Positions 39,685 to 62,499 of a stretch of DNA of 64,000 nucleotides are shown piece by piece. Each line of letters starts with the position of its first letter. Position 1 is the stretch's first letter. Under the pieces are notes generated by a model, which saw only the letters and a list, made by a program, of their open reading frames with translations, was not told where the DNA came from and ran no database searches. Origin of the DNA: Muribaculaceae bacterium (GTDB taxonomy: Bacteria; Bacteroidota; Bacteroidia; Bacteroidales; Muribaculaceae). Position numbers and translations under genes: made by a program. Location: NCBI GenBank assembly GCA_017473615.1, contig JAFUKL010000004.1, positions 1 to 64,000 on the forward strand, read 5' to 3'.

Positions 39685-39706
39685 AACCCCAAAAAGCTAT
39701 AATATT

Positions 39707-47817: not shown

Positions 47818-48534
47818 ATGAAAAAAACATTATTATGCGCAATAGTCGCAATTACAACATTTTGCGCCCAAGCACAAATGGTGCGTATTGAGGAGCCGGA
47901 AATACAATCGGCAGATTCTATTAAAATAGAGGAAAAAATAAAAAGTACAGACTTTGCGGAACAGGAAGTATTTGAAATTTACAGAGACTATGTACTTTCC
48001 ATAGGTCCTAAAGTGGGAGCAAGTTATGTGATGGCAGGAGATCCTGATGGTATGGGGGATCTTGGCATGAGCGGTAATATAGGTTTCTCTGCCGGTGTTG
48101 CTGCTAATCTTCGTTTCGCTCGTCCTGAAGGAGATCCGTTGGGAACTGAGCGTTTCGGAGTGCAGGTTGAGGCGTTATATTCTATGCGTACACTGAAGAA
48201 CGATGTGGAAGACCTTAAATTGAATTGTTTTGAAATTCCGGTGCTTTTCCAATGGTATGCGTTACCTGCATTATGCGTTGAGGCAGGACCTACATTTACA
48301 GGGGTACTATCAGCATCTCCCGACAATCTCAAATATAACAACACAGTATACCAAACAAGTGAAATCAAGGGGTATGACGTGATGTTGACTATTGGAGCAG
48401 AATATAAGGCTAAGAATGGATTTACAGCCGGAATACGCTATAATATGGGTAACAGCGAACTTGCCGACAATTTCAAGACCAAAGTAAGTTCCCTTTCCGT
48501 AAGCATAGGATGGATGTTTACACTTGTGAAATAA
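47818..48534 (+). CDS. Outer-membrane beta-barrel protein
   Basis: 238 residues with a signal peptide (FCAQAQ). A short N-terminal segment (about 20-60) is followed by alternating strands of the PorT/OmpX-like barrel type (SIGPKVGASYVMAG, FGVQVEALYSMRTL, FTAGIRYNMG) and a final strand SLSVSIGWMFTLVK ending near an aromatic residue. One of three barrel proteins in this operon. Confidence 0.82.
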   Translation: MKKTLLCAIVAITTFCAQAQMVRIEEPEIQSADSIKIEEKIKSTDFAEQEVFEIYRDYVLSIGPKVGASYVMAGDPDGMGDLGMSGNIGFSAGVAANLRFARPEGDPLGTERFGVQVEALYSMRTLKNDVEDLKLNCFEIPVLFQWYALPALCVEAGPTFTGVLSASPDNLKYNNTVYQTSEIKGYDVMLTIGAEYKAKNGFTAGIRYNMGNSELADNFKTKVSSLSVSIGWMFTLVK

Positions 48535-48584
48535 TCAGTTATAGTGTGATAAAATTAATTATCAATTTAAAATAAGAAACAGAT

Positions 48585-49616
48585 ATGAAAAAATATATAT
48601 TGATGCTTGCTGTAGCATTTGCAGCCGTTTTTTCATCTTGTACCAATGATGAAATACCCGTTCAACAATCAACCTCTTTCAAAATCAACCTGGCAACAGT
48701 TGTAGATGGTTTCGCTTCAATTGAACTTAGTCCAGGTGAATTGACAACACCTCCTTTTAACTCAAGGTTAAGAGTTTGTCTGTTGGTATATAACAAAGCC
48801 GGTGTCCTTGTAAATAAAGAGATACAATATGCTCAAAGTTATTCTCAAATAATAAGTTCAAAAATGGATTTATCTGAAGGAGATTATACAATACTTGTTA
48901 TCACAGATGTGGATTTAACGGATGAAATATATAATCGTTGGAAACTTGAAGGTGAAGAAAATTTAGCTACAACTAAAATAGTAGGAACCGGTTATATAAA
49001 GAATGAATTAGCGATTCTTGGTATTAAATCCCAACAAATAAAAATAAATAGCAATGACAATATTGAATATAAAATTAACGTTGAACCTGCCGGTGCTATA
49101 ATAAGAGTTGATTATTATAATTGTAATAAATGGGATTTTGTTGAATCTTATGAATTAGCTGTAAAACAAATAAGTTCTGATATAAAATTTGATTCAAACG
49201 GGGAACCTCAATATTCTATAGAAACTTCTGATGTTTATAAATGGCGTATAAATAGCGTTGATACAAGGTATGAAGAATATTATAACGGACAAGTTTTAGC
49301 CGGAGAATATCGATATTCTTTCTCATTCCCTCAAAAGAATGCTTATTTTAGATTTGAAGAAAACGAAATAGATGGAGATGAGAGTTATAGTGATTTTTGT
49401 ATTTGTGATATTAATAAGGGCTGGGGATATATTTTTGAAATAGATACATACGATCTTACAACTCAGTGGTATTATTATGATCCGAGTGCTGATCGTTCAC
49501 CCGAAAATAAAGGACTATTGAAAGGTGATTTGAAATTACAAATGACTGATCGGAATTTGCAAAAGGTTGATTTGTCAAAGGTTGCAACTGCTACAAGCAT
49601 TTATGTAACGGATTAG
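48585..49616 (+). CDS. Lipoprotein, possibly FimB/Mfa2-like
   Basis: 343 residues with a lipoprotein signal (AAVFSSC, Cys19). The body is beta-rich, with an early GFASIELSPGELTTPPF segment and SEGDYTILVITDVD, a pattern seen in fimbrillin-associated lipoproteins of Bacteroidales, but I do not recognise it firmly. The coding sequence is clearly more AT-rich than its neighbours. Outer-membrane or surface-exposed location is inferred. It lies 50 bases after the barrel gene and 7 bases before the S41 protease gene. Confidence 0.7.
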   Translation: MKKYILMLAVAFAAVFSSCTNDEIPVQQSTSFKINLATVVDGFASIELSPGELTTPPFNSRLRVCLLVYNKAGVLVNKEIQYAQSYSQIISSKMDLSEGDYTILVITDVDLTDEIYNRWKLEGEENLATTKIVGTGYIKNELAILGIKSQQIKINSNDNIEYKINVEPAGAIIRVDYYNCNKWDFVESYELAVKQISSDIKFDSNGEPQYSIETSDVYKWRINSVDTRYEEYYNGQVLAGEYRYSFSFPQKNAYFRFEENEIDGDESYSDFCICDINKGWGYIFEIDTYDLTTQWYYYDPSADRSPENKGLLKGDLKLQMTDRNLQKVDLSKVATATSIYVTD

Positions 49617-49623
49617 ATTAAGA

Positions 49624-50994
49624 ATGAAAGGTAATCTATTATTGATATTATTTTTAATTACAATTTTTTGTAGCTGTTCATCCGACAAAGACGAACCGTC
49701 TTTGTCGGATGAACCGACTACTTCCATAGAAGGAGCATCTACTGATTTCAATCAATGGATTTATTCTCATATGAATCATTATTATCTGTGGCGTGAGGAT
49801 ATGCCGGACTCTTTGGAATGTGATTATACTATTGATCCGGTATCTTTTTATAAGAACTTGTTCTCTCCAAAAGATAGATTTTCATATTGTTCTTATAATA
49901 AAGGTTACAATCCTTCAAGGATACAAGACTTGTCCAAGTGGGGATTTGCTTATCAACTATATAAGGACAATAGTGGCAATACCTTATATCAGGTACTTTA
50001 TGTTCAATCACGGCAATTAAAAGCCCAAGGCTTGAAACGTGGAGACTTGCTTAAATTGAAAGAGAGTAATAGTATATCGACTACGTTCTATATTGTAGAA
50101 TATAGAAACAGAGAATTGCAAATAAAGAAAGAAATTATCACGGAAACATTAGGAACTGATTCCGAAAGCAACACGATTCTATTAGATTCCATTTACAATA
50201 TTAAAGATAAAAACATAGGATACCTTTGTTATCTTCAGTTTGACGGCAAGCAGGATCTTACTCGGGTGATAAACCAATTTTATGTGAACGGTATTGATGA
50301 ATTGGTTCTTGATCTTAGGTATAACCCGGGAGGTCTTGTTAGTACTTGTAGGTATTTATGTAATTGTATTGTTCCGGAGCAAGGGTATTGCAAAATATTT
50401 CAACAACATAGTTTCAATGAAGTCTATTCTGAAGAGGTCTATCGTGAAACCGGAGATTATCGGGAATATAGCTACTTTGAGAGACCGCCGGAATATACCG
50501 ATGATAAATTAGGAACAAAATTGTATCCGTTAAAGTTATCAAGAATTTATGTACTTACGTCGCAACACACGGCATCGGCAAGTGAGGCTACAATAAACAG
50601 TTTAAAACCTTATATGGATGTAGTCGTGATAGGGGAGCAAACTACCGGAAAAGGTGTAGGCATGTTTACTCTTTCAAGTCCGGAATATAAATATGCTTTA
50701 GTTCCTATAACTTTTCGCTATTACAATGCATTGGGAGAAACTGTACCCGATGAAGGGATTGTCCCCGACTATTATGTCCCCGATGGATATTCTACCCTGA
50801 AAAGAGAAATAGGCGATATAGAGGAACCTCTTTTGCGCCAAGCATTGACGCTGATCTGTCCCGACATTTTCGATTATATGCCAATGGGAAGAGCGTCACA
50901 CATTGAACAAGAAAACAATTATCTCACTCCGGTGGGAGAACCATCATATATAACAGAATTTAAACAAAAACAATATCTATATGAAAACAACTAA
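49624..50994 (+). CDS. S41-family C-terminal processing protease, lipoprotein
   Basis: 456 residues with a lipoprotein signal (ITIFCSC; Cys17 or Cys19). N-terminal cap with YYLWREDMPD and DRFSYCSYN, a PDZ-like middle (about 95-190), and the S41 core: ELVLDLRYNPGG near 225, catalytic Ser in QHTASASEATI near 320, and Lys in TTGKGVG near 343. It should cleave exposed C-termini in the periplasm or outer membrane. An unusual perfect hairpin sits in the coding sequence just after the lipid box (49679-49711). The end overlaps the next gene by 14 bases. Confidence 0.9.
   Translation: MKGNLLLILFLITIFCSCSSDKDEPSLSDEPTTSIEGASTDFNQWIYSHMNHYYLWREDMPDSLECDYTIDPVSFYKNLFSPKDRFSYCSYNKGYNPSRIQDLSKWGFAYQLYKDNSGNTLYQVLYVQSRQLKAQGLKRGDLLKLKESNSISTTFYIVEYRNRELQIKKEIITETLGTDSESNTILLDSIYNIKDKNIGYLCYLQFDGKQDLTRVINQFYVNGIDELVLDLRYNPGGLVSTCRYLCNCIVPEQGYCKIFQQHSFNEVYSEEVYRETGDYREYSYFERPPEYTDDKLGTKLYPLKLSRIYVLTSQHTASASEATINSLKPYMDVVVIGEQTTGKGVGMFTLSSPEYKYALVPITFRYYNALGETVPDEGIVPDYYVPDGYSTLKREIGDIEEPLLRQALTLICPDIFDYMPMGRASHIEQENNYLTPVGEPSYITEFKQKQYLYENN
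49679..49711 (+). repeat. Perfect 14-base inverted repeat inside the S41 gene
   Basis: CATCCGACAAAGAC (49679-49692) pairs with GTCTTTGTCGGATG (49698-49711) around GAACC. It encodes a SSDKDEPSLSDEPT linker. Confidence 0.8.
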
Positions 50995-52222
50995 ATGTAT
51001 TTTATTTTTGGCAGCTGCATTAGGCTGTTTTACACAACTAAACGCTCAGGAAGGACTGAAAATGGTTCTTAAGAACGGGTCTGAACTTAATGGTTATATC
51101 TCACGCCAGCGACCGGGTGAGAATTTCACATTTTCTTCAACGAGTGCGACAATAATCCTGCCGGCAACGGAGGTTTCAAGCATTACCGACAATCAAGTGA
51201 AATATACAAATTTGTCGGCTGAGTGGGCTGAATGGGCTGAAGAAAATAATGCTTTTATAGGAGAAGATGAAAATCGTGTGCTTGTATTAAGTAACATCAT
51301 AAAGAAAAACGGTACAGTGAACCAAGTGAGAATACTCGAACGCGGTGCTAAAATCAAGTACTATACCGTAGAAAGCGATACTCACACGTTAAATTGGGAC
51401 ACAATAAGTGTAGTAAAGGCTGAAACGCGTTCGAAAGAATTGCTATCGGGAGTGAACCGTTGTTATAAGTTGAAATCGGGAATAGAATATGAGGGAGAAT
51501 ATGTGGAAGAAGTTCCCGGAGAGACTGTAAGTTTGTTTAATAAAAACGGATATGTAGATGTGTTTAATACGGCCGAGGTGCTTAAAGATACTCGCGTAGG
51601 TGTTAATCCTAATCAAAGTCTGTTCGAACAGTCTTCGCTTCTTGATGTCGTTGAATTGAAGAAAGGCGGTACTTATAAAGGTATTATTTTTGAAAGAAAT
51701 TACTTTGAACAGCCAAGCGATGACTATCTCCTAATACAATTGGAGGATGAAAAGATCATGAGTGTTAAGCTTGATGATATCGCAGAATATCGAAAGGAAA
51801 CTAATGAGAAATATAATCCGTTAATAGATGTTTTCCTTGAGGAGAATGAATTCATGCTAAATCGTCATGAAGCCATAGGGTATGTTACTGAAGAAGTTAA
51901 GGGTGTTATTTGCTTTGTCCCGGATTCCGCAGTGGTAAAATTGCAAAAAGGATTGATTTCTCTTGAGACAAAATTGAAAAACCCGCTACAGAGCCAACAA
52001 TTGAAAGTGTTGAAAGCATATCAGTATAAGGATAAAAAGAAAAAGACCTCTTTCTACGGTTTCACTTATGAAGATATCGTTAAGTCTGCCATACAGCCGA
52101 TAAAGGTGGAAACAAGCGTTAACGGAACAACCAAGATGGATTATAACATTCCTGCTCCGGGCTTTTATGTGGTGTATAATCCGTTGACAAAGGTAGCGAT
52201 TCCGTTCCGTCTGCATAATTAA
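50981..52222 (+). CDS. Secreted protein with three SH3-like repeats
   Basis: 413 residues with a signal peptide (QLNAQ). Three related units are visible: VLKNGSELNGYISRQRPGE near 30, YKLKSGIEYEGEYVEEVPGE near 165, and VELKKGGTYKGIIFE near 225. Each is a small beta-barrel-like unit ending in a D/E-rich segment. The last 120 residues form a separate domain. No enzymatic motif; I do not recognise a named family. It overlaps the S41 protease gene by 14 bases, suggesting coupled synthesis of a protease and partner. Confidence 0.7.
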   Translation: MKTTKCILFLAAALGCFTQLNAQEGLKMVLKNGSELNGYISRQRPGENFTFSSTSATIILPATEVSSITDNQVKYTNLSAEWAEWAEENNAFIGEDENRVLVLSNIIKKNGTVNQVRILERGAKIKYYTVESDTHTLNWDTISVVKAETRSKELLSGVNRCYKLKSGIEYEGEYVEEVPGETVSLFNKNGYVDVFNTAEVLKDTRVGVNPNQSLFEQSSLLDVVELKKGGTYKGIIFERNYFEQPSDDYLLIQLEDEKIMSVKLDDIAEYRKETNEKYNPLIDVFLEENEFMLNRHEAIGYVTEEVKGVICFVPDSAVVKLQKGLISLETKLKNPLQSQQLKVLKAYQYKDKKKKTSFYGFTYEDIVKSAIQPIKVETSVNGTTKMDYNIPAPGFYVVYNPLTKVAIPFRLHN

Positions 52223-52268
52223 GAATAATATGTTAAGTCTTAGATAACAACTGAAAAAAAGACCGGAT

Positions 52269-53186
52269 ATGAAACGTTTTATTACAGTGATGTGTGTGGT
52301 TCTGCTATCGGTTTCGGTAGTTTTTGCACAAGAGATAACACATAAAGTGAAAAAGCACGAAACCATTGCCTCTATAGCAAAAACTTATGGAGTTTCGTCC
52401 GATGATTTGTTAAATGCCAATCCTACTCTAAAGTCGCGTATGTATGTGGGTATGGTTTTGAATATACCTGTGGCAAAGACGGCAGAAGTCAGTCAACCTA
52501 AAAAATCAGCTGAGCCTAAAATTAAGCAGAAAGAGAGTCGGCAAACCGTTACTCAAAAGAGCGAGCCGAAAATTGTTCAATCTGAAATAAGAGAAGACAA
52601 AATCAAGGTCAAAGATGAAAATAATGCGGTCGATGAGAATGAGGTTGAATCTGAATTTACTCGTAGAGCCGGTAAGGGTGGAGTAAATATGGAGATGTTT
52701 TGGGGATTTCTTGAAAATCCGCATGATATGTATGATTGGTTTGGTCATGGTTCTTTAATGGCTCATTTTAAGTATAAATACTATCTGCATGATAATATTT
52801 ATGCCGGAATCGGTTTGGGGTTTGGTTGGTCTGTCTTTGATACAGATGAAGATAAAATGGAATATGATATGAAACAAACATGTTGGTTTGTACCAATCCC
52901 GATAGAAATTGGTTTGGATTTAGCTCCCCAATCAAAAATTGCGTTAATACCAAGTTTGGGATTGAATGCGAATATTTGTGTTTCTGAAGAAACTGAAATT
53001 GACTCGAAAAAAAAGAAAAATAAAATGGGTGGTGAAGTCGGGCTTGAAGGACGAATTGGGTTAGCATTGCGTTTGAGTGAAGGCTTTGCTATAAAAGCGA
53101 GTTATAATACACCTTTCAGTGATGAAAACAAAGCGTTTTTTGGAGAGGATGGCTATCTTACAATTGGCTTTGTGTCAGGTTTTTAA
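52269..53186 (+). CDS. LysM outer-membrane barrel protein
   Basis: 305 residues. Signal peptide 1-20; LysM domain about 24-68 (HKVKKHETIASIAKTYGVS, ANPTLKSRMYVGMVLNIP), which binds peptidoglycan; a Lys/Glu/Gln-rich linker to about 130; then a C-terminal beta-barrel of about 170 residues ending LTIGFVSGF with the terminal aromatic residue typical of barrels. It would link the outer membrane to the cell wall. Middle of the operon, between secreted and cytosolic components. Confidence 0.85.
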   Translation: MKRFITVMCVVLLSVSVVFAQEITHKVKKHETIASIAKTYGVSSDDLLNANPTLKSRMYVGMVLNIPVAKTAEVSQPKKSAEPKIKQKESRQTVTQKSEPKIVQSEIREDKIKVKDENNAVDENEVESEFTRRAGKGGVNMEMFWGFLENPHDMYDWFGHGSLMAHFKYKYYLHDNIYAGIGLGFGWSVFDTDEDKMEYDMKQTCWFVPIPIEIGLDLAPQSKIALIPSLGLNANICVSEETEIDSKKKKNKMGGEVGLEGRIGLALRLSEGFAIKASYNTPFSDENKAFFGEDGYLTIGFVSGF

Positions 53187-53221: not shown

Positions 53222-53794
53222 ATGAGAAAAATAACAATAGGGCGTGCTTCAGATAACACGATAGTGTTTTCATCACCAACGATAAGCGGTCATCATGCCG
53301 ATGTGTTAGTGTTTGACGATGGAAGAGTCGTTTATACCGATCACTCCTCAAACGGAACATGGGTTAATGGAAGCCGGTTGCATAATGAATCTTATGAAAT
53401 CAGGGAAAATGATAGAGTTATACTTCCCGGAAATGTGCTGCTTGATTGGTCTATGCTGCATATAAGAACTCCAAAAACTCATTTTGAAACATACAATTCC
53501 AACTCCGGGGGAGTAAAACAGGGATATTCCCATCAGTATGCGGGTCAAATTTTAAAAAATCGTCCAAAAACGAAAAAACCATTAAAGAATTTGTTATATG
53601 GACTAAAATTTATTTTGATTCCTTCTACTGTCTGGTTCGTTTTGCATTTTATTGAAGAAGGTACCGATTCAGATGGAATTACAAGTAGTGAAGCATGGAT
53701 AATGTATTCTGCTATTGGGCTTTTAACAGTAAATACTTGCTTATTTATATTTAATCGAAAATGGCAAAAATTAATAGATCATTGGTTACCATAA
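53222..53794 (+). CDS. FHA protein with two membrane helices
   Basis: 190 residues. FHA domain 1-78 (TIGRASDNTIVF, ISGHHADV at 21-28, SSNGTWVNG at 42-50). A polar linker leads to two membrane helices at about 125-143 and 157-176. The FHA faces the cytosol. It is 36 bases upstream of the ubiquitin-like gene, so it may bring that module to phosphorylated membrane proteins. Confidence 0.85.
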   Translation: MRKITIGRASDNTIVFSSPTISGHHADVLVFDDGRVVYTDHSSNGTWVNGSRLHNESYEIRENDRVILPGNVLLDWSMLHIRTPKTHFETYNSNSGGVKQGYSHQYAGQILKNRPKTKKPLKNLLYGLKFILIPSTVWFVLHFIEEGTDSDGITSSEAWIMYSAIGLLTVNTCLFIFNRKWQKLIDHWLP

Positions 53795-53830: not shown

Positions 53831-54160
53831 ATGATGACAGACGAATTTTATAATAGTGATGAATTTATTATCTTTTTAACTATAGATGGAACTTCTTACG
53901 AAGAGGTAGAAGTAAGGGTATCAGACCCTTATAAGACCATCCGAGACCAAATAAACAGTATCGTGACGGTATTTGAACTGCCTAAGATAGACAACGGAGG
54001 CAATCCTATTCAGTACCTGATCGGTCAGATAATGGAGGACGGCGGCGAACCGGAGATTCTTGAATTTGAGGATGCCAACGGACGTGAACAGGCGTTGATT
54101 GATTATGACATTCAGTCGGGCGACCATCTGCATTTGATTTCAGTTCCGATTGCCGGATAA
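53831..54160 (+). CDS. Ubiquitin-like beta-grasp protein ending in Gly
   Basis: 109 residues. Two beta-strands (EFIIFLTIDG, YEEVEVRVS), a helix after DPYKTIRDQINSIV, further strands and a final strand HLHLISVPIAG give the beta-grasp order. The chain ends at Gly109 right before the stop codon, so a conjugation-ready C-terminal Gly is exposed without processing. The family match is my reading of fold and context; similarity to ubiquitin itself is low. The E2-like gene follows after 22 bases, which supports a conjugated ubiquitin-like protein and argues against a YukD/EsaB role. Confidence 0.85.
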   Translation: MMTDEFYNSDEFIIFLTIDGTSYEEVEVRVSDPYKTIRDQINSIVTVFELPKIDNGGNPIQYLIGQIMEDGGEPEILEFEDANGREQALIDYDIQSGDHLHLISVPIAG

Positions 54161-54182
54161 TACAGTAAAATTATAGCATGAG

Positions 54183-54839
54183 ATGAACGCAACTATCAAC
54201 GATTATAACCAAGAGGAACTCACCGGACGTGATGCACGCTTATGGAAGGAGTGGAAAGAGCTTGACATGTTATGTGCAAAGCGTAAAGCTACAGCCTCCA
54301 ATCCTCGCCGTCCATCGCTGTCGTATATAATCCGTAGGAAGAATGTTCTTGGGCTTCCTACGGAATATGAAATATGGTATCGAGTGAAATCTATCGTGGG
54401 AGTGAAAGGAGACACGACTCCTCGCGAGCCTGTATTCGGCTATCTACACAAGATGAGTATTGTGCTTCCCAACAATTATCCATCAGCCGACGGAAATCCT
54501 ATATTTACTTTCCGCACCGATATATGGCATCCCAATATCCGATCTTCAGGAGGTTTTAAAGGGCATGTATGTCTCACTATAAAGGAGATGGGCGTATTGG
54601 CATCGTTGAAGGACTTGGTGCTGCGTGTAGAGCAGTATTTGAAGTACCAGCTTTACCATGCGCAAAACACTTATCCTTATCCTGAAGACCAAAATGTGGC
54701 GGAATGGGTGCGAGAGGAAGGCGAACCTAACGGCTGGGTGAGATTCGGTCAGGACAAGCCTGAACAGGAAGATACTCCCCCCGTAGTAAGTAAAAAAGAT
54801 ACAGATAAAGGATTAACTATAAATTTAAAGACAATATGA
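54183..54839 (+). CDS. E2-like ubiquitin-conjugating (UBC-fold) enzyme
   Basis: 218 residues. N-terminal helix about 14-35 (GRDARLWKEWKELD), strand region to 96, then NNYPSADGNPIFTF with the conserved YP (99-100), the HPN triad at 116-118 (IWHPNI) and candidate active-site Cys130 in GHVCLTI. The HPN-to-Cys spacing is 11 residues instead of 7 in eukaryotic UbcH5-type enzymes. The C-terminal 50 residues are hydrophilic. It should receive the ubiquitin-like protein from the E1-like enzyme and pass it to a target. Its stop overlaps the next start (ATGA). Confidence 0.92.
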   Translation: MNATINDYNQEELTGRDARLWKEWKELDMLCAKRKATASNPRRPSLSYIIRRKNVLGLPTEYEIWYRVKSIVGVKGDTTPREPVFGYLHKMSIVLPNNYPSADGNPIFTFRTDIWHPNIRSSGGFKGHVCLTIKEMGVLASLKDLVLRVEQYLKYQLYHAQNTYPYPEDQNVAEWVREEGEPNGWVRFGQDKPEQEDTPPVVSKKDTDKGLTINLKTI

Positions 54840-55945
54840 AAAAAAGAATTTCAATATTATTTCTGTTGCTGTTGACAATGACTACAGTCTCTTTTGCTGA
54901 TGTGCAGAAACATGTAAAATTGGATAACGTTAAGAAGACAGGAGAACGTATAGTGTTTGATTATTTCGATATATGTTTGAAACTTACCGAAGATGCGAAT
55001 GATTATATAAAAGTTGATGTGGATATAGAAAACACCGATGAAGAGAAAGGTATATTGCTTTTTGGTAGAGCCTATTCGGAAGATGAACTGAAAAAAAGGC
55101 AACCAAAGATTAAGTTCCATAAGGATTTTTCAGGTTCTAAAGGCAAGAGAATTACTGACGCATACAGTCCTCATATCCGCAATAATATAGTTTATATAGA
55201 ACCGGGTGAAAAAACTGATTTATTGACAATGATCTTTGAAAATAAAGGAGGAGACGGAACATTGAATTTACCTGTTTATATGATTAATTATAAAGAGGGC
55301 AGGAATTCAGTGCCATTTGAAAAGAATGAGCTTGTTATATCAAAGGAAGAGAAAGTGGAGTTGGTAGTAGAGGTGGAAGTTAAACAAGAGCAAGGGCAAG
55401 AGCTGGAGCAGGAACAGGAAAAAGTTGATCCTAATATAGTCAGTGAATATAATAAGTTGAAAGCTGAATATGACACTGCATCTTTCTGTAACAACGAGGC
55501 TCATGAGCCTTCATTGGCTGAGCAAAAAATGGAATTTCAGAATAAGATAGATTCACTGAAAGAAAAAATAAACGATGAAATATCAGCCAAGACCCTTCTT
55601 ACTGGAAGTTCGTTGTATGATGAGTATGACGCATTGAAAAAGAGCTTGGATACGCTGGATCTATCCAAAAAAGAAAGTGATTGTGGCGAGCATGGAGAAC
55701 CTAATGTACACTCCTGTTGGTTATGCAGTTCTTCGTTAGAACAGATGTATAAAAGTTTGGATAAAATCTATCAGGAAATATATAGCAGTCATGGTCAAGA
55801 CCGTGAGGCTAAAAAAGAGAAGTATTATTATGATGTTCGTGGTATGTATAGATGTGCGCAACAACGTGAAGAATGGCAACATAGCGAATACAAGGATAAA
55901 ATCGAAAAATTTTATAACAAGACTATGGAGTTCTACAAAAAATGA
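54836..55945 (+). CDS. Secreted protein with coiled coil and a Cys/His zinc-like cluster
   Basis: 369 residues with a signal peptide (VSFADV). The N-terminal half (about 25-165) is a beta-sandwich-like domain; a Glu/Gln/Lys-rich stretch (EQGQELEQEQEK) leads to helices. A cluster C283-x2-H286-x5-H292-x-C294-x2-C297 could bind zinc, with C208 and H213 as possible extra ligands. The last 50 residues are charged and helical. Unknown family. It sits between the E2-like and JAMM genes and is translationally coupled to the E2, so it is likely part of the same system, although predicted to be exported. Confidence 0.7.
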   Translation: MKKRISILFLLLLTMTTVSFADVQKHVKLDNVKKTGERIVFDYFDICLKLTEDANDYIKVDVDIENTDEEKGILLFGRAYSEDELKKRQPKIKFHKDFSGSKGKRITDAYSPHIRNNIVYIEPGEKTDLLTMIFENKGGDGTLNLPVYMINYKEGRNSVPFEKNELVISKEEKVELVVEVEVKQEQGQELEQEQEKVDPNIVSEYNKLKAEYDTASFCNNEAHEPSLAEQKMEFQNKIDSLKEKINDEISAKTLLTGSSLYDEYDALKKSLDTLDLSKKESDCGEHGEPNVHSCWLCSSSLEQMYKSLDKIYQEIYSSHGQDREAKKEKYYYDVRGMYRCAQQREEWQHSEYKDKIEKFYNKTMEFYKK

Positions 55946-56007
55946 TTAACTGATTATGCATAATATTATTTTATCATATACCAATAAAAACGAAAAAACT
56001 ATCTGAT

Positions 56008-58098
56008 ATGGATATGAAAATTTTAGTCAGGAGATGCTTAATAAGTATTCTGATGATGAATGTTTTTGTGCCTCTCTTTGCGGATATAGATTGGAGGGAT
56101 GTAGTAATAGAAAAAGATTTAAAATCAGACTCTGTAATAAGAGTTAAGAGCATAAAAAATAATAGTGATAATGATATAAAAATAATATTAAGAGATCACA
56201 ATAACGATGTCTGCTATGAGGTTGAAATCCTCAAAGGTGAAAGTAAAACAATAAATAAGGAATGTAGCAGAATAGATGCTAATACATCAAGCGTTAACAC
56301 TTCCTTGTGGAATAAAAAAAAGACAAAGGAAGAATGGGATAAGGAACATCCTGTAGCTCGTGATGAGAAAATTAAAGAAAAGAAAGAAGCTGAAGAAAAA
56401 AAGGAGGAAGAGAAAAAAGAAAACCCGGTTGTTCCTATAGATCCAAATCCAGATCCGATAAAAGAGGAGGTAAGCGGGGAGGATGTTATCAAAGATTACA
56501 AGAATGAACTTGAAAAAGATTCTTTATTGTCTCTTTCAGCAATAGATAATGATAAGAATATAATTAATTCTATCGGTAAATCGGAAGATAAGGTTGCATA
56601 CATAGATCACCATAACCTAAAAGGTTACATTAAAGAAAAATCTGAGGAATTAACAAAGCAATATACGGATGAAGAGATAGAGACAAAAGCCGATCTTTTC
56701 TTAAAACGTTATGATTATAAGATAAAAAGCGATTTCAATTGTAAGGATAGTATAAAGAGTATCATAAAAGAACGGTTGGAAATGCGTAAAGCGACTATCG
56801 ATCAGTTAAAGAATTTGATTGATACCGTAGACCGAAACAAGGAAACAAATAATTATTTACCGATAGGTATCGGTGTCATAGTAGTTCTTGTGGGATTGAT
56901 TGCATGGATAATACTATTAGCCAAGAAGAAAAAAGATGGGCGTAAACAGGATAATATTCAGCAATCACCGGATACAGGCTTGTCACCGGCTATAGTTGTG
57001 AAAAAAACTACTTCAACGGTGTTGAAAGAGCAAAGTATCGAGAATGTCGTGAATAATAAAGCCTATTACAAAATCGAGTGTTCTGAATTTTGTGATGATT
57101 CGGCGGTAAAAAGCATATATATCAAGAATACGTGCATAAAGGCAATCTATAATATGTATGCCGATGATTTGAGAAATCCCAATAATCCCAAGGAAGACGG
57201 CTGTATGGTTCTCGGTCGCTGGATTTGCGATGAAGTGGAAAAAGAATATTACGTATCATTGGAAGAAATCGTATTGCCGGGCAATGATGCTGTATTCAAG
57301 GAATATGAATTGAACTTCGGAGGAAAAATCAAGTTGAGAGTTGCCGAAAAATTACGCAAGTTGCGTAAGGAATCCAATTTGCAATACGACTTGACCTGCT
57401 GGGTACACTCACATCCGGGATTAGGTGTTTTCTTCAGTAACTCCGACTCCGGTGTGCAGATGCAGCTCAAGCATCCCACACATCCTAATTTCCTTATTGC
57501 GATAGTGGTGGATATACTCACACCGCAACAGGAGTTCGGAATATTCACATTCAAGCACGACTCTACTATTAATTCCAAGAATGATTTGAAGAAGATGTAT
57601 TCTTTAGAGGAATTATATAAATGGGCAATAGAAAGCGAGCGATTCTCTTATAAACCGGAGGACTATTATAATTCATTGTCTAAGGCAGACCGGGTAAATG
57701 ACAATTGCCGGAGCATAATGCTAAGTAACGGTGCCATTATCGATATATCTTCACTTGTAACCGGAAGAAATACAGGATTATCGGGGTTGGCATACGGCTA
57801 TGAGTTGCGTAATAACGGAAAGACCGAATTGATAATCAACTCAATATCCAAGAGCGAGAATGCCAACGGCGATGATTTATTAGGATGCTTTGTTATTGGA
57901 ACACATTGCGACATGCAAACGATAAGAAATGTGATGTCGAAATATGCCGGAGAGATAAGATTTGTAATGTTCTATTCCATGCCGGAAGAAACCGTTACAC
58001 TCATTCCGGTGATAAACAATCAAATGAGCATGGATTCGAAATATTTTGCAGAAGAAAAATTAGAAGATTTAAAGATATGGACAAGACGAAAAAGATGA
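56008..58098 (+). CDS. Transmembrane JAMM (JAB/MPN+) isopeptidase-like protein
   Basis: 696 residues. Signal peptide or first membrane helix about 8-25; periplasmic part 26-282 with a Lys/Glu-rich stretch (about 103-140) and helices; membrane helix 283-305; cytosolic JAB domain about 355-560. The JAMM motif is complete: E396 (PKEDGCMVLG), H467 and H469 (HSHPG), S477 and D480 in HSHPGLGVFFSNSD, spacing identical to Rpn11/CSN5. A second domain follows (about 575-696, GCFVIGTHCDM) without the motif. It would remove or process the ubiquitin-like protein on the cytosolic side. It overlaps the RING gene. Confidence 0.92.
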   Translation: MDMKILVRRCLISILMMNVFVPLFADIDWRDVVIEKDLKSDSVIRVKSIKNNSDNDIKIILRDHNNDVCYEVEILKGESKTINKECSRIDANTSSVNTSLWNKKKTKEEWDKEHPVARDEKIKEKKEAEEKKEEEKKENPVVPIDPNPDPIKEEVSGEDVIKDYKNELEKDSLLSLSAIDNDKNIINSIGKSEDKVAYIDHHNLKGYIKEKSEELTKQYTDEEIETKADLFLKRYDYKIKSDFNCKDSIKSIIKERLEMRKATIDQLKNLIDTVDRNKETNNYLPIGIGVIVVLVGLIAWIILLAKKKKDGRKQDNIQQSPDTGLSPAIVVKKTTSTVLKEQSIENVVNNKAYYKIECSEFCDDSAVKSIYIKNTCIKAIYNMYADDLRNPNNPKEDGCMVLGRWICDEVEKEYYVSLEEIVLPGNDAVFKEYELNFGGKIKLRVAEKLRKLRKESNLQYDLTCWVHSHPGLGVFFSNSDSGVQMQLKHPTHPNFLIAIVVDILTPQQEFGIFTFKHDSTINSKNDLKKMYSLEELYKWAIESERFSYKPEDYYNSLSKADRVNDNCRSIMLSNGAIIDISSLVTGRNTGLSGLAYGYELRNNGKTELIINSISKSENANGDDLLGCFVIGTHCDMQTIRNVMSKYAGEIRFVMFYSMPEETVTLIPVINNQMSMDSKYFAEEKLEDLKIWTRRKR

Positions 58099-60485
58099 TT
58101 TCTAAAGTATTGGCGGTAATAGTGATGCTGTTAGGCGCAACCGGCATACTTCAGGCACAAAAAGTAGAAAAAATAGAGTTTTGTGACAAGCATTATGAGT
58201 ATAAACCCGGAAAGGACAGTATTACATTATTCTTTAACTTGCTGGATTCAACAGGCAACCATGTCAAAATATCAGGAAATGATATAAAATTAGGAGATAA
58301 TTTTGACATAAAAGAGGACGGAGAGTATATTAATCCGGAAAATTCCAAAATAACGGTTTTAAGTTCCGGACAACGTATTTCTGCCGAATATACCTTTTCT
58401 GTTCTTGTGGATTTGACAATACCGCAAAGCGGGAAAGATGATATTTATAAAACAATCAGGAAATTGGTTGACAGTGCTCCTGACAGTTGTGTGTATTTGT
58501 CGTTTTTCGGTGATGAAGTATCGGAAAGCCGTGTTGTGACTAAGGCTAACTATAAGGAATTTAAGAATAACTTTGAGAAAAAGGCTGAAAACAAATATTT
58601 TTATAGCGGATTGTATGCTAAATTGCTTGAGTTTGGTAAATCTGAAGTGTTTGAAGACAGCGTAAGAGCAGAGACCGGATACAAGAAAAACACAAAAATT
58701 GCCGATAGAGCTGAATCAAATAAAGAGAAGAATATACTGTTTGTGTTTACCGAGGGAGGGAATGATCCTACGGAAGAGGATTTGAGTTTTATTGAAGTGA
58801 CCGGTTTTCAGGGAGATTTGTCACATATAGCTCCCAAAGTCGTGGCTTTGTATTATACTGAAGAAAATGAAGAACCAAATATCAAGAAGACTTTAGAGGG
58901 TATATGCAAACCGCGAAATATTACGGGAGACATAATAAAGGAACGTGAGGGAAAATATCTGCCTGCTAATGAAATGGAGGATATTCTGAAAAACTTTGAG
59001 GAGGTCGTAAATGATGCTATGTATGATTATGCGTTTACCTATAAGGTGGTCGGTTCTAAGAATTATTCAGGTAAAGTCGGATATGAGGCTGAATGGAAAA
59101 ACAATATAATCGGTTCAGGTGAATTCTCGGTAGGTACAGCCGAAAGGTCATGGCCTATAAGAGTGGAGGATACCGGTGATATCGCATTAAAGTATCTTTA
59201 TGCTTTGCTTATCACGTTAGGAACCATTGCATTTTTCTTTATAGTAACAAAGATACTTGTACCGTATATACGGTTTAAGTCATTTTCTCTGAAATATTAC
59301 AAAAGGTACGTTCCTGAAGCAAATGTTTCAAGACGAATATGTCATTATTGCAAGCAGGATATTCAACCGGGTCAATATGTGGTAATGAAGTGTAAACACA
59401 TTATGCACGTATTTTGTTGGCAACAGAATGGTTATAAATGTGCCGAGTACGGGCAAAATTGTAAAACCGGGATTCAAAGTCACATAGAGTGGAGTGGTCT
59501 GTTCAGTCTTAATTCAATAAAAGATTGTGGACAATCCATTTCGGGTATCATAGCCGGATTTATCAGTTGGATTTGTTATGAGATTTTTGGAGGAGGCTTA
59601 TTGGATGTTATATCAACGCATATAGTAGAACTTTTTTATAGCAGTAAGATAGAAAACGGAACTTTATTTACTGATTGTGTGACTAAGACTTCTGCGTTTT
59701 TGATTATCGGAATATTGTTGGGATTCTTCTTATCACTGATTTTCAGAAGTAATGATGAATATAAGAAGAAAGATTTCAAGGTGTGGTGCAAGATACTCGG
59801 ATTGTCGATACTGACCGGTGTCATCGGAATGATTGCTTTTGCATTGGGTGCTAACATAATGTGTTTACTCTTGTCTGCAACAGAGATGACATACATCCCA
59901 TGGTATTGCTCATTGCCTGCTTATATATTGTTCTCTATAAGCGTATCATTGGCTTTGACAATAAAATCCACCATTCCTGTGAAGAGCGCATTGCTTGGCG
60001 GTTTATGCTCGGCACTGATAGGCTTTATCGTCTTATATTGCTCAAGCTATGCCGGTAACACAAGCGGTAGGATGAATATGCTGTTGGATTTCATTATATA
60101 TGGCGGCGGTCTGGGCGCTTCGTTGGTTACGGTAAGAATGCTCGCAGAAAAATATTTCTTGGTTATTCAAAACGGAGTCAGAGCCGGTCAAAAGATACCT
60201 ATACATAAATGGATGAATGCAACCGGCGGTGGAAACAAAGTCACAATAGGAATGACCGGGGAGTGTGAAATCCAAATGAATTGGGAGAAGAGTAATAAAG
60301 TAGCTAAGGAACACGCTCAATTATTTATCGATTACGATAAGCAATTGCCTATGCTGAAACCGTTGGCGGCAGGAGTGGTTTTCAATACCCGTGCCGAATT
60401 GCCTGTAGGTAAGCCGTCGGTATTGTCTAACGGAGACAATTTCAAGATAGGTGATACAATTTTCTTATATCAAGAAACCGAATAA
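58077..60485 (+). CDS. Multi-pass membrane RING-H2 protein with vWA-like and FHA-like domains
   Basis: 802 residues from ATG 58077, which gives a Lys-rich n-region; ATG 58095 (ATGA overlap with the JAMM stop) is equally possible. Signal peptide about 1-28; periplasmic vWA-like domain about 95-330 with a degenerate MIDAS (D112-L-T114); membrane helix about 371-398; RING-H2 module C422, C425, C439, H441, H444, C447, C455, C462; six further helices (about 487-512, 528-546, 563-589, 598-619, 628-649, 658-679); C-terminal FHA-like domain about 695-802 (VTIGMTGEC, AKEHAQL, LSNGDNFKIG). Helix count puts RING and FHA in the cytosol. A membrane E3 that reads phosphothreonine is the best guess. Confidence 0.85.
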   Translation: MDKTKKMISKVLAVIVMLLGATGILQAQKVEKIEFCDKHYEYKPGKDSITLFFNLLDSTGNHVKISGNDIKLGDNFDIKEDGEYINPENSKITVLSSGQRISAEYTFSVLVDLTIPQSGKDDIYKTIRKLVDSAPDSCVYLSFFGDEVSESRVVTKANYKEFKNNFEKKAENKYFYSGLYAKLLEFGKSEVFEDSVRAETGYKKNTKIADRAESNKEKNILFVFTEGGNDPTEEDLSFIEVTGFQGDLSHIAPKVVALYYTEENEEPNIKKTLEGICKPRNITGDIIKEREGKYLPANEMEDILKNFEEVVNDAMYDYAFTYKVVGSKNYSGKVGYEAEWKNNIIGSGEFSVGTAERSWPIRVEDTGDIALKYLYALLITLGTIAFFFIVTKILVPYIRFKSFSLKYYKRYVPEANVSRRICHYCKQDIQPGQYVVMKCKHIMHVFCWQQNGYKCAEYGQNCKTGIQSHIEWSGLFSLNSIKDCGQSISGIIAGFISWICYEIFGGGLLDVISTHIVELFYSSKIENGTLFTDCVTKTSAFLIIGILLGFFLSLIFRSNDEYKKKDFKVWCKILGLSILTGVIGMIAFALGANIMCLLLSATEMTYIPWYCSLPAYILFSISVSLALTIKSTIPVKSALLGGLCSALIGFIVLYCSSYAGNTSGRMNMLLDFIIYGGGLGASLVTVRMLAEKYFLVIQNGVRAGQKIPIHKWMNATGGGNKVTIGMTGECEIQMNWEKSNKVAKEHAQLFIDYDKQLPMLKPLAAGVVFNTRAELPVGKPSVLSNGDNFKIGDTIFLYQETE

Positions 60486-60509
60486 ATAACATAATTAAAA
60501 ATTATCAAA

Positions 60510-61265
60510 ATGAAAAAAATTATTTTATCAGCTATCCTGTTTGCAGCAGCAGTTGCCGGATATGCACAAAGACCAGACAAATTAGAAATAGGACCGTATG
60601 AAGTGGAATATTTTGGTGAAGGGGATTATAAAGCTCGTCTTCGCAAAGGCATAGACCTTTATAAGTATTTTGATTTGAAAAGGGATACGGTAATCAAAAA
60701 GAACGTAATCATGCCAAATCCTAAATCTGAATCCAACCCTGTAAAGTGTGGCATTCAAGCAAGTGTATTCATGAGTTTGCCGAGATTTGCCGTAAGCGGA
60801 AATTCTAATATGTTTGGTGTAAGCGGAAGCTGGAAACAACAATTCGGTAAAAAATACTATTGGAATGCCGGTTTATCATTGGGATATTTATATGGAGAAT
60901 ACAGCAGCCCGTCTTACAGAGAGGATGCCATGATAGAAGTAGGAATACCTCTTTCAGTGGAATTTGCCTGCTTGGATTACAAAAAATCATCGGTTTATGC
61001 AGGAATAGGGTTGACTCCTACATTTTACAGCACATTAAAAGCAGATGAAATTGACGAAAACGGTGCAACGGTCAATGGCGAGAAAGATTCTGGCTTTTTA
61101 ATCGCTCCGCGAGTGGATTTCGGTGGATATATACCGCTAAGCAAGCATATACTTCGTGTAGGTATATTCGCTGAATATAAGATAAATTGCTCAGGTGACG
61201 TGAATATTTATAAAGAAAGAATAGGCAGGGCATTTGTAGGAGCGAATGTCGGCATAATTTTCTGA
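60510..61265 (+). CDS. Outer-membrane beta-barrel protein
   Basis: 251 residues with a signal peptide (VAGYAQ). After a 60-residue N-terminal region come amphipathic strands (CGIQASVFMSLPRF, YYWNAGLSLGYLYG, SVYAGIGLTPTFY) and a last strand AFVGANVGIIF ending in Phe, the usual barrel terminus. It sits between the RING and E1-like genes, so the envelope and conjugation parts of the operon are interleaved. Confidence 0.82.
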   Translation: MKKIILSAILFAAAVAGYAQRPDKLEIGPYEVEYFGEGDYKARLRKGIDLYKYFDLKRDTVIKKNVIMPNPKSESNPVKCGIQASVFMSLPRFAVSGNSNMFGVSGSWKQQFGKKYYWNAGLSLGYLYGEYSSPSYREDAMIEVGIPLSVEFACLDYKKSSVYAGIGLTPTFYSTLKADEIDENGATVNGEKDSGFLIAPRVDFGGYIPLSKHILRVGIFAEYKINCSGDVNIYKERIGRAFVGANVGIIF

Positions 61266-61287
61266 TGCTGTAAAATAAAATTATCGG

Positions 61288-62499
61288 ATGCAGAAGAAAG
61301 AAACTTATGAATGGGGAGAAGGAGTGTACACACTCCTCTCCTGGTTCAAAAAAGAAAAAGTTAAAAACGCCCGGGTTTTGGTTGCCGGTGCGGGTGCTTT
61401 AGGCAACGAAGTTGTGAAAAATCTTGCATTATTCGGTATAGGTCATATCTATGTGGTGGACTTTGACCGAATAGAGATTTCAAACTTGACCCGTTCTGTC
61501 CTTTTCAGAGAAGAAGATGCGTATAACCATTCTTATAAATCGGAAATTGTAGCAAAACGGGCTATGGAAATTAACCCGCAGATAAAAGTTGTGCCGATAG
61601 TAGGCAACTTGTATTCCGAAGTAGGTTTTGGTCTGTATAAGTCGGTGGATGTTATTATAGGATGCCTTGACAGCCGTATTGCCCGGTATTATTTAAATAA
61701 ATTAGCTATGCGTGCAGGCAAAACATGGATAGACGGCAGCATTGAGAATATGATCGGTGTCGTCAGGGTTTTTACCCCCGGAGTAAGCTGCTATGAATGC
61801 GGACTTTCTCGAGAGGAGTTTAATAACATCATGCTTAGGTTAGGTTGTGCCGATGTTGTAAGGATGCAGGAGAATGCGGGGCGTGTAGCAACAACGCCTA
61901 TAAGTGCATCTATTATTGGAGCAATGCAGGTGCAGGAAGCAATGAAAATAATACATCTTTCCGCAGGTGAGACAGAGGAGGTTCCGTTCAAGACATTGCA
62001 AGGAAAGATGCTGAGATATGAGGGCATGACAAATTCCGTGAATATATATAAATATGCTTCTTGGAAGAGTATTTGTCCTGCTCATGAAGAATGGAGCAAT
62101 ATAGTGAAAGCAGAAAGTCTGTCGGCAGAGGATACCGTTGACACCGTATTAAAGACATTGAAAAGTATTCTTAATGTTAATGCCTTAGAAATTAACATGA
62201 GGAATAACAAATTTATAGATAAGATTGTATCGGATAAACCGGAAAAGGAATTTATGGTAAAAATTCCGGAGTCACAACTTGATGATTATATCGCAAATAA
62301 TGAAGAACTGAGGAAGTTAAGTTATAAAACCATCTTCCATAAAGATTTCATTGAGAATATAGATGAGACATTCCCATATAAGGATATGTCGCTTAAGGAT
62401 ATAGGCATTCCGTTATTTGATATAATGCAGGTTTCAACAGAAAAAGGTCAATATTTCGTAGAACTTACTAAGGACGCATCAGTATATAATTTGGCATAA
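61288..62499 (+). CDS. E1-like (ThiF/MoeB/Uba family) activating enzyme
   Basis: 403 residues. Rossmann ATP site GAGALGNE (34-41), D58 and D60, NLTR (66-69), D128 (GCLDSR), all as in ThiF/MoeB. Zinc ligands appear as C168/C171 (CYEC) and C263/H266 (CPAH), the latter CxxH rather than CxxC. C187 (LRLGCADV) is the candidate thioester Cys. The C-terminal 130 residues (270-403) are extra; the final stretch SLKDIGIPLFDIMQV looks like a small beta-grasp or E2-binding domain. It would adenylate the ubiquitin-like Gly109 and transfer it to the E2. Last gene of the operon. Confidence 0.93.
   Translation: MQKKETYEWGEGVYTLLSWFKKEKVKNARVLVAGAGALGNEVVKNLALFGIGHIYVVDFDRIEISNLTRSVLFREEDAYNHSYKSEIVAKRAMEINPQIKVVPIVGNLYSEVGFGLYKSVDVIIGCLDSRIARYYLNKLAMRAGKTWIDGSIENMIGVVRVFTPGVSCYECGLSREEFNNIMLRLGCADVVRMQENAGRVATTPISASIIGAMQVQEAMKIIHLSAGETEEVPFKTLQGKMLRYEGMTNSVNIYKYASWKSICPAHEEWSNIVKAESLSAEDTVDTVLKTLKSILNVNALEINMRNNKFIDKIVSDKPEKEFMVKIPESQLDDYIANNEELRKLSYKTIFHKDFIENIDETFPYKDMSLKDIGIPLFDIMQVSTEKGQYFVELTKDASVYNLA

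What the first reader, a model, noticed from the sequence alone, without database searches (positions are those of the whole stretch)
53831..62499. Complete bacterial ubiquitin-like conjugation set: Ubl, E2, JAMM, RING, E1
Seen: a beta-grasp protein ending in Gly, a UBC-fold protein with HPN and a candidate Cys130, a JAMM protein with all metal and catalytic residues, a RING-H2 protein with eight ordered ligands, and a ThiF/Uba protein, in that order in one operon. Known: Iyer, Burroughs and Aravind predicted such bacterial operons, and Bil-type systems conjugate a Ubl to phage structural proteins. Inference: here the set is embedded in a much larger envelope and phospho-signalling operon, and JAMM and RING are membrane proteins, unlike the compact Bil layout. 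I see no nuclease or obvious killing effector, so defence is possible but not the default reading.
Basis: partly seen in the sequence, partly recalled or inferred. Interest (0 to 1): 0.95.

Follow-up and report, generated by a model that had tools for sequence, protein, structure and literature searches.

The report
Ubiquitin-like tagging kit of secretion harpoons
The stretch holds a full bacterial version of the ubiquitin tagging machinery, and in the close relatives found the same gene set sits inside the gene cluster for a cell-to-cell harpoon (type VI secretion), which suggests that bacteria use ubiquitin-like tagging to control this weapon; in this genome none of the harpoon genes looked for was found.

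Summary
A Ubl ending in Ala-Gly, a UBC-fold E2 (HPN, Cys130), a transmembrane JAMM protein, a transmembrane RING-H2 protein and a ThiF-type E1 lie in one 20-gene operon; key residues are invariant in 30-44 aligned sequences. New here: in 42 of 42 related Bacteroidota loci the E1 is followed by T6SS baseplate genes (TssG and TssK 42/42; the four-gene block 39/39 with enough sequence), and TssC is present in 21 of 21 such genomes tested. TssN and TssR were not recognised there. In a cousin lineage a PAAR gene is near the set and phage-type sheath genes lie 20-27 kb away. The window is an exception: the set lies behind a recombinase and an FHA/kinase/PP2C block, which itself heads a T6SS in G470; TssC and TssF were not found in this 78%-complete genome. 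Best reading: a membrane-anchored, reversible Ubl-conjugation module wired to phospho-signalling and evolved for contractile injection systems, here without its machine. Conjugation is inferred, not shown.

The parts
38118..39404 (+). Tyrosine recombinase, may invert the segment downstream
   Evidence: Pfam Phage_int_SAM_5 3.9e-20, Phage_integrase 5.9e-8; relatives stand before the same block in G012 (48%) and G470 (75% over 64 aa)
39483..39497 (.). Left arm of a 15-bp perfect inverted repeat (predicted invertible promoter)
   Evidence: 0 of 2000 mononucleotide shuffles of the 346-bp stretch gave such a pair
39657..39671 (.). Right arm of the inverted repeat
39707..40465 (+). FHA-domain protein (first operon gene; start chosen by homology to G012)
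   Evidence: Pfam FHA 6.5e-15
40483..42063 (+). Ser/Thr kinase 1
   Evidence: Pfam Pkinase 1.3e-35
42060..42971 (+). Ser/Thr kinase 2
   Evidence: Pfam Pkinase 2.2e-46; 60% to the G470 T6SS operon
42994..44025 (+). PP2C phosphatase
   Evidence: Pfam PP2C_2 9.6e-16
44035..44655 (+). FHA-domain protein
   Evidence: 55-62% to FHA proteins of G470 and G012; not scanned with Pfam
44681..46252 (+). Two FHA domains plus trypsin-like protease
   Evidence: Pfam FHA 1.5e-33 (2 stretches), Trypsin_2 6.6e-9
46249..47793 (+). WG-repeat protein
   Evidence: Pfam WG_beta_rep 4.3e-22
47818..53186 (+). Envelope-type genes: OMP-like, lipoprotein-like, S41 peptidase, 413-aa protein, LysM protein
   Evidence: S41 9.7e-24 and LysM 1.3e-8 by Pfam, the rest by eye; all but the LysM gene collinear in G012
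53222..53794 (+). FHA protein with a C-terminal hydrophobic stretch
   Evidence: Pfam FHA 3.7e-17
53831..54160 (+). Ubl, 109 aa, ends Ile-Ala-Gly
   Evidence: cousin Ubl matches YukD and ubiquitin under cut-off
54183..54839 (+). E2, UBC fold, HPN and Cys130
54836..55945 (+). Protein with signal-like start, unknown function, conserved in the set (c3)
56008..58098 (+). JAMM/JAB isopeptidase with N-terminal hydrophobic segment and one TM; JAB domain predicted cytoplasmic
58077..60485 (+). Predicted RING-H2 E3: exported vWA-like domain, TM, RING, more TMs, FHA-like C-terminus
   Evidence: vWA and FHA named from the cousin
60510..61265 (+). Protein that looks by eye like an outer-membrane protein (present in only part of the relatives)
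   Evidence: no Pfam hit under 0.08
61288..62499 (+). E1 (ThiF/Uba type), Cys187, predicted Zn site C168/C171/C263/H266, C-terminal extension
   Evidence: roles of the Cys residues inferred

Best explanation
This is a membrane-anchored, reversible ubiquitin-like conjugation pathway that evolved as the post-translational control (or licensing) unit of a contractile injection machine, in Bacteroidales a T6SSiii-type type VI secretion system. Proposed steps, all inferred from sequence: the E1 adenylates the C-terminal Gly of the free YukD/ubiquitin-like Ubl and passes it through Cys187 to Cys130 of the E2. The RING protein, held in the inner membrane with an exported vWA-like domain and cytoplasmic RING and FHA-like domains, docks the charged E2 where a kinase has phosphorylated the machine or its membrane proteins, and directs the Ubl onto a baseplate or membrane-complex protein. 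The membrane-bound JAMM protein removes it again. Kinases, PP2C and FHA proteins set the phospho-signal. In this genome the set has been joined to an FHA/kinase/PP2C operon that is probably phase-variable, and no T6SS gene sought was found, so here it is either left over from or re-used after loss of the T6SS, or the T6SS lies in the missing part of the assembly.
For: Set and residues. T6SS context: TssG and TssK after the E1 in 42/42 loci, the four-gene block in 39/39 with enough sequence, identified by TIGR03353/TIGR03357 (both under curated cut-off), GPW_gp25 2e-9 and hhalign to a canonical T6SSiii locus (TssG 91%, TssK 97%, TssE 93%, TssF 97%; the canonical TssF is itself named by size and position). 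Front half in Barnesiella An22: ClpB-type ATPase, TssC 1e-128, Hcp x2, VgrG, PAAR-like DUF4280, and a TssB named by position. TssC in 21/21 set-bearing genomes tested. In 99 genomes (own and 98 relatives) TssC occurs in 3, two of them the only two others with a 67-68% E1 (these two are the same genomes as loci L063 and L067). Deeper branches: G646 and G709 carry Ubl and E2 within about 10 kb of ClpV/TssB/TssC. Second machine type, looser: in G183 a PAAR gene is about 2 kb from the set and sheath, tube, spike and gp25 genes lie 20-27 kb off on the other strand. Regulation: kinase, WG and PP2C genes follow the baseplate genes in many loci, and the window's own FHA/kinase/PP2C block heads a T6SS in G470. 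Window E1 nests inside the T6SS-linked clade (sister L037, 99/93).
Against: No conjugation, target or secretion has been shown. In this genome neither TssC nor TssF was found, and none of 13 T6SS-locus proteins matches the 81-kb contig. G074 carries a distant set (E1 42%) without TssC, so the module can live without a T6SS. G470 has a T6SS of the same low-score TssC type without an E2 match, so the set is not needed by all such machines. The 42 loci were found by exact E1 peptide patterns, so they are close relatives, some near-duplicates, and not 42 independent cases.
Confidence: 0.6

Rival explanations
1. Structural replacement: c3, c4, JAMM, RING and the OMP-like protein of the set form the trans-envelope membrane complex of these T6SSs in place of TssNQOPR, and Ubl conjugation drives or locks its assembly.
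For: TssN over cut-off in 0 of 22 and TssR in 0 of 24 set-bearing genomes (own included), while the canonical G077 locus is positive for both; the set sits between the spike and baseplate genes and codes several exported or TM proteins; canonical TssR also has a vWA domain, and TssN an EccD-like, ubiquitin-like domain proposed to dock TssK (PMC10781749, passages).
Against: No profile similarity of c3, c4, JAMM, RING or Ubl to TssN/O/P/Q/R of one canonical locus. G470 shows neither the set nor TssN/TssR by tblastn in the 52 kb read. In G183 a TssR-like gene lies about 16 kb downstream of the set. TssO, TssP and TssQ were not searched genome-wide.
Confidence: 0.25
2. In the window genome the set is no longer tied to any injection machine and serves envelope phospho-signalling in its new operon.
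For: No match for 13 T6SS-locus proteins on the 81-kb contig, no TssC or TssF in the genome; most of the front block occurs in G012, which has no TssC; the window keeps all residues listed.
Against: The assembly is 78% complete; the front block heads a T6SS operon in G470, so both halves of the operon have T6SS ties. dS between window and L037 is saturated for six of seven genes, so selection could not be measured.
Confidence: 0.4
3. Anti-phage defence of the Bil or CBASS Cap2/Cap3 kind.
For: Ubl, E2, JAB and E1 are shared with Bil; PADLOC E1-E2 models hit the E1 (best 1.9e-15).
Against: The PADLOC hits shown cover only the ThiF core; the six other proteins of the set have none at 0.01. There is a RING protein and membrane anchoring, and T6SS neighbours in 42/42 loci. 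No match to the E2 in 50,697 phage records shows only that it is not a phage gene there.
Confidence: 0.06
4. The Ubl is a cargo or effector tag: it is conjugated to secreted T6SS parts or effectors, or itself delivered.
For: In relatives the set lies close to VgrG and PAAR-like genes; the nearest relative has a second Ubl-like gene without the terminal Ala-Gly.
Against: JAMM and RING catalytic domains are predicted cytoplasmic; the Ubl is highly conserved (54-84% identity to the window in A1), unlike most effectors.
Confidence: 0.1
5. Sulfur-carrier or cofactor pathway (ThiS/MoaD-like).
For: The E1 core is closest to ThiF/MoeB models.
Against: E2, RING and JAMM are conserved with full active-site residues; no cofactor genes seen beside the set.
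Confidence: 0.02

Closest known systems
Prokaryotic Ubl systems with RING E3s and YukD-like Ubls (Burroughs, Iyer and Aravind 2011, PMC5938088)
   Same: From recall: predicted operons with E1, E2, JAB, RING and YukD-like Ubls. The cousin Ubl here matches Pfam YukD, just under cut-off. Probably the same broad class.
   Different: The paper is not held, so I could not check whether these very operons or a T6SS link are in it.
Uncharacterised Ubl/JAB/E1/E2 operons of Iyer et al. 2006 (PMC1779556, passages)
   Same: Gene content Ubl, JAB, E1-like, E2-like; class 6d includes Bacteroides thetaiotaomicron.
   Different: 6d E2s lack the histidine of classical E2s; here HPN is invariant, and RING, vWA and FHA are added. 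The words FHA, PP2C and vWA were counted 0 times in that paper.
BilABCD (PMC11354881, passages)
   Same: Ubl, E2, JAB and E1 in one operon.
   Different: BilA has two Ubl domains and BilD an inactive plus an active adenylation domain and a Cys domain; here a single-domain-sized Ubl, an E1 of 403 aa, a membrane JAMM, a membrane RING and, in relatives, T6SS neighbours.
Caldiarchaeum subterraneum Ub operon (PMC5654768 and PMC6043591, listings and abstract starts)
   Same: E1, E2, RING, Rpn11-type JAMM and Ub in one operon; the best PDB match of the JAMM profile is an Rpn11-like protein (6fjv) that I take from recall to be this one.
   Different: No TM, vWA or FHA parts and no injection system there (from recall).
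T6SSiii of Bacteroidota with TssNQOPR membrane complex (PMC10781749, passages)
   Same: TssC (PF17541), TssD, baseplate genes.
   Different: TssN and TssR not recognised; instead the Ubl set lies between spike and baseplate genes. The paper states that the MC or part of it is found in all the T6SSiii it examined.
Threonine phosphorylation pathway of T6SS (PpkA, PppA, Fha; PMC3953482, PMC5995506, listing and abstract start)
   Same: Kinase, phosphatase and FHA proteins tied to a T6SS.
   Different: Here an FHA-like domain is fused to the predicted E3, which would join phosphorylation to Ubl conjugation.

Membership tests
Bacterial Ubl-conjugation system with E3 | Ubl with C-terminal Gly and beta-grasp fold | tested here: inconclusive
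   IAG in 30/30 extracted; window Ubl only weakly ubiquitin-like; cousin Ubl matches YukD 1.3e-5, under cut-off. Structure prediction off.
Bacterial Ubl-conjugation system with E3 | E2 with UBC fold, HPN and catalytic Cys | tested here: met
   UQ_con over cut-off, PDB UBC 8e-6, HPN and C130 40/40, kept in cousins L035, L107, L133, L134
Bacterial Ubl-conjugation system with E3 | JAMM with E, HxH, S, D | tested here: met
Bacterial Ubl-conjugation system with E3 | RING with eight ligands C3H2C3 | tested here: met
   ligands 40/40; profile match to RING folds weak
Bacterial Ubl-conjugation system with E3 | E1 with adenylation core and catalytic Cys | tested here: met
   ThiF 1.9e-49, C187 44/44; that C187 is the thioester Cys is inferred
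Bacterial Ubl-conjugation system with E3 | Covalent conjugates | not testable with these tools
   needs experiment
BilABCD defence | Two-domain Ubl and E1 with inactive plus active adenylation domains | tested here: not met
   Ubl 109 aa, E1 403 aa with one ThiF stretch; definition
T6SSiii (in relatives) | TssC PF17541 and baseplate genes | tested here: met
   TssC 21/21 genomes tested; TssG/K/E and the TssF-like gene; Hcp, VgrG, ClpB-type ATPase by Pfam in one locus, Barnesiella
T6SSiii (in relatives) | TssN and TssR of the membrane complex | tested here: not met
   0/22 and 0/24 over cut-off, G077 control positive. TssO/P/Q not searched genome-wide.
T6SS (window genome) | T6SS structural genes | tested here: inconclusive
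   TssC and TssF not found genome-wide, 13 queries not found on the contig; genome 78% complete
Recombinase-controlled invertible promoter | Recombinase gene beside a segment bounded by inverted repeats | tested here: met
   that a promoter lies inside was not tested
Recombinase-controlled invertible promoter | Both orientations found in a population | not testable with these tools
   no reads available

The most novel reading that the evidence does not exclude
A ubiquitin-like conjugation pathway is a built-in part of at least two kinds of contractile injection machine (a T6SSiii branch and a phage-sheath-type system). In the T6SS branch a covalently attached free Ubl takes over the baseplate-docking role proposed for the fused ubiquitin-like domain of TssN in canonical machines, with the RING/vWA/FHA protein as membrane hub, so that assembly is licensed by phosphorylation and reversed by the JAMM protein.
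Probability: 0.18. Interest if true: 0.96.

Novelty: new variant of a known kind. Interest (0 to 1): 0.87.

Why it matters
It gives a full E1-E2-RING-JAMM cascade in bacteria a concrete, testable job, control or building of contractile injection systems, in strain-named isolates (Barnesiella An22, Xylanibacter muris PMUR). It also points to a branch of Bacteroidales T6SS without recognised TssN or TssR, parts of a membrane complex that a recent survey reports, whole or in part, in all the systems it examined (PMC10781749, passages), and it would show ubiquitin-like conjugation and Ser/Thr phosphorylation wired together in one bacterial membrane protein, as in many eukaryotic pathways.

Tried and rejected
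Anti-phage reading: PADLOC finds only the E1 core, no phage record in the collection holds the E2, and the neighbours in relatives are secretion genes; put low. Mobile plasmid origin: tblastn of the E1 in 72,556 plasmid records gave 136 with a match but none covering 80% of it; the best is a Crinalium plasmid with a cousin set. PF05943 (VipB) as T6SS marker gave 0 of 8 and 0 of 1 and was shown to be blind to this TssC type; PF17541 was used instead. dN/dS between the window and its nearest relative could not be computed for six of seven genes, because synonymous sites are saturated; closer pairs of relatives gave ratios of 0 to 0.17. Pfam on the 26 Ubls gave no significant family. My idea that the set replaces the TssNQOPR complex is kept only as a rival, because G470 lacks both in the stretch read and G183 has a TssR-like gene as well as the set. 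The first clustering seemed to lack baseplate genes in five loci; a direct tblastn showed that wrong strand calls and contig ends were the cause.

Papers: PMC10781749, PMC11354881, PMC1779556, PMC4714493, PMC8213781, PMC7159879 and PMC3482391 were seen as passages only; the others named were seen as search listings with abstract starts. Among the rows listed in searches I saw no title or abstract start reporting Ubl conjugation genes in a T6SS or other contractile injection locus, and of these papers only the seven above were opened. The library is open-licence only and the 2011 RING paper is missing, so prior description is possible.

Full report
WHAT IS THERE. The operon runs on the + strand from an FHA gene (start 39707) to the E1 gene (end 62499): 20 genes with gaps of at most 62 nt. 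The last third holds Ubl, E2, a protein with a signal-like start (c3), JAMM, RING, a protein that looks like an outer-membrane protein, and E1. Profile searches place the E2 with UBC enzymes and the JAMM with Rpn11/CSN5. The RING match is weak. The Ubl of the window itself is hard to classify: profile hits are almost all ubiquitin, but single-domain E-values are 0.099 or worse. A more distant set helps: in G183 the Ubl at the same place matches YukD (1.3e-5) and ubiquitin (9e-4), both under cut-off, and the RING-equivalent protein has vWA (1.6e-7) and FHA (3.2e-8) domains over cut-off. In that cousin the zinc ligands of the RING are mostly gone and the stretch reads like a U-box (by eye).

TOPOLOGY. 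By hydropathy, the JAMM protein has an N-terminal hydrophobic segment and one TM at 286-304, so its JAB domain is predicted in the cytoplasm. The RING protein has an N-terminal segment, a TM at 377-395, the RING at 422-462 and further TMs before an FHA-like C-terminus; its vWA-like part is predicted to be exported. E1, E2 and Ubl have no predicted TM.

RELATIVES. A scan of species genomes with E1 peptide patterns gave 42 loci, all titled as Bacteroidota lineages and most of them as Bacteroidales, at 63-84% identity. Gene order is kept: Ubl, E2, c3, c4, JAMM, RING, in part of them the OMP-like gene, E1. After the E1 come four genes of about 295, 325-415, 165 and 595 aa. I read them as TssG, TssK, TssE and TssF: NCBIfam TssK 1.9e-13 and TssE 4.5e-6, both under the curated cut-off, Pfam gp25 2e-9, and profile alignments to a canonical T6SSiii locus at 91-97% probability. 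In that canonical locus TssG passes its Pfam cut-off and TssK is just under, while TssF is named by size and position only. TssG and TssK are found in 42/42 loci and all four in 39/39 that reach far enough (37; of the other five, two have all four and three end early). In Barnesiella An22 the other side of the Ubl operon holds a ClpB-type ATPase, a gene taken as TssB by position, TssC (PF17541, 1e-128), two Hcp, VgrG and a PAAR-like protein; a like order was read by eye in the nearest relative of the window (L085) and in Xylanibacter muris (L088). TssC was found in 21/21 set-bearing genomes tested. By the coordinates, in 20 of them it lies about 6-15 kb from the Ubl; contig identity was checked by sequence in three only. 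In 99 genomes (own and 98 relatives) TssC occurs in three, two of which are the only others with a close E1 (they are also loci L063 and L067); the third, G077, has a canonical T6SS and no close E1. The E1 of the window is sister to that of L037 and nests within this T6SS-linked clade.

NOT THE USUAL MEMBRANE COMPLEX. PF17555 (TssN) passes its cut-off in 0 of 22 genomes and PF17643 (TssR) in 0 of 24 (own included), while the G077 locus scores 6e-88 (TssN), 1.5e-35 (TssR) and 3e-90 (TssR_VWA). Two TssN hits below cut-off lie on contigs other than that of TssC. c3, c4, JAMM, RING and Ubl show no profile similarity to TssN/O/P/Q/R of that one locus. This allows, but does not show, that the Ubl set stands in for the membrane complex.

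WIDER SAMPLE. Among 393 Bacteroidales genomes, own included, TssC occurs in 17: 12 score 568 bits or more, one is a fragment at a contig edge, and four score 316-436. Of these four, Xylanibacter muris (already among the 42), G646 and G709 carry Ubl and E2 nearby, the last two at 30-47% identity but with the same HPN and Cys, and aligned to the final Ala-Gly. G470 does not, and has no E2 match in its genome. Its T6SS operon instead begins with genes like those of the window's operon: recombinase, FHA, kinase, PP2C, FHA, FHA-protease, 413-aa-like protein, kinase and WG, then the ClpB-type ATPase, TssB, TssC and the rest. So both halves of the window operon are T6SS-linked somewhere. But most of the front block also occurs in G012 without a close E1 and, as G012 lacks TssC, probably without T6SS, with a different tail that includes a radical-SAM-like gene. 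Of the canonical T6SS genomes only G077 was checked for the E1.

SECOND MACHINE TYPE. At E 1e-10 the E2 profile was found in 3 of 395 Bacteroidota genomes, the own included; more divergent sets would be missed. The other two, G183 and G277, belong to one genus and carry PAAR (other strand), an nSTAND1-type ATPase, E1, Ubl, E2, JAMM and the RING-equivalent in a row. In G183, 20-27 kb upstream of the E1 and on the other strand, lie gp25 (2.6e-24), spike, CIS_tube (3.5e-28), gp19-type tube and sheath genes, and about 16 kb downstream a TssR-like gene (4.1e-16). This is one further lineage and a looser link. G074 has a distant set with a Ubl that continues after Ala-Gly and no TssC.

THE WINDOW GENOME. 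No TssC, no TssF, and no match for 13 T6SS-locus proteins on the 81-kb contig, against 13/13 in the Barnesiella control. Other T6SS genes were not sought genome-wide, apart from TssN and TssR. The assembly is 78% complete, so loss is likely but unproven. c4 is absent from the contig. A 15-bp perfect inverted repeat bounds 159 nt between a tyrosine recombinase gene and the first FHA gene; G012 has like arms at the same place, and Barnesiella has a 30-nt, 87% repeat before its T6SS behind a gene that looks like a recombinase by eye. This is the layout of an invertible promoter; expression of the whole operon may be switched on and off.

HOW IT MAY WORK. Shown: gene content, order, conserved residues, context. 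Inferred: activation by E1, transfer by E2, ligation at the membrane by the RING protein, removal by the JAMM protein, reading of phospho-threonine by its FHA-like part, and a target in the injection machine. What is known from other T6SSs (kinase, phosphatase and FHA proteins controlling assembly; listings and abstract starts) makes a licensing role the most economical reading. Confidence that this is a working Ubl-conjugation pathway is about 0.85; that its main evolved role is with contractile injection systems about 0.7; that it serves such a machine in this very host about 0.3. The overall figure given is 0.6.

KNOWN OR NEW. Bacterial Ubl/E2/JAB/E1 operons are known (PMC1779556, PMC11354881, passages), and RING-bearing ones were predicted in 2011 (recalled; not held). 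A link to T6SS or other contractile injection loci was not met in the listings and passages seen. I therefore file it as a new variant of a known kind, with a bolder reading kept open.

Noticed in passing
window 39395-39740: 15-bp perfect inverted repeat, 159 nt apart, between a tyrosine recombinase gene and the operon: predicted invertible promoter; like arms in G012 and a longer repeat before the Barnesiella T6SS.
   Followed up: partly
L100/L101 (G012): Most of the FHA/kinase/PP2C block with another tail: SH3-type protein, CTSCANGSYNNGGSG-repeat protein and a radical-SAM-like gene (by eye); the block looks like a platform with exchangeable cargo.
   Followed up: no
L085 3605-3988: Nearest relative has a second Ubl-like gene that lacks the terminal Ala-Gly, with a radical-SAM-like gene (by eye) between the two.
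   Followed up: no
L107 12347-14728: RING of the cousin E3 has lost most zinc ligands and reads like a U-box (by eye).
   Followed up: no
L035 2783-3067: Distant Ubl in G074 ends IIAGYLVV: perhaps a precursor that the JAMM protein would have to trim.
   Followed up: no
L106 (Crinalium epipsammum plasmid NC_019754.1): Cousin set: ThiF protein, two small proteins that may be Ubls, E2, JAB, then a T4SS-type coupling protein.
   Followed up: no
L130-L132 (G470): T6SS operon with neither the Ubl set nor TssN/TssR detected in 52 kb; its membrane complex is unknown.
   Followed up: partly
L065 7472-9868: The RING gene reading contains one in-frame stop; broken gene, wrong start or assembly error.
   Followed up: no
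L065, L066, L072, L075 E1 genes: These E1 proteins are about 35-50 aa longer than the rest (436-452 aa).
   Followed up: no
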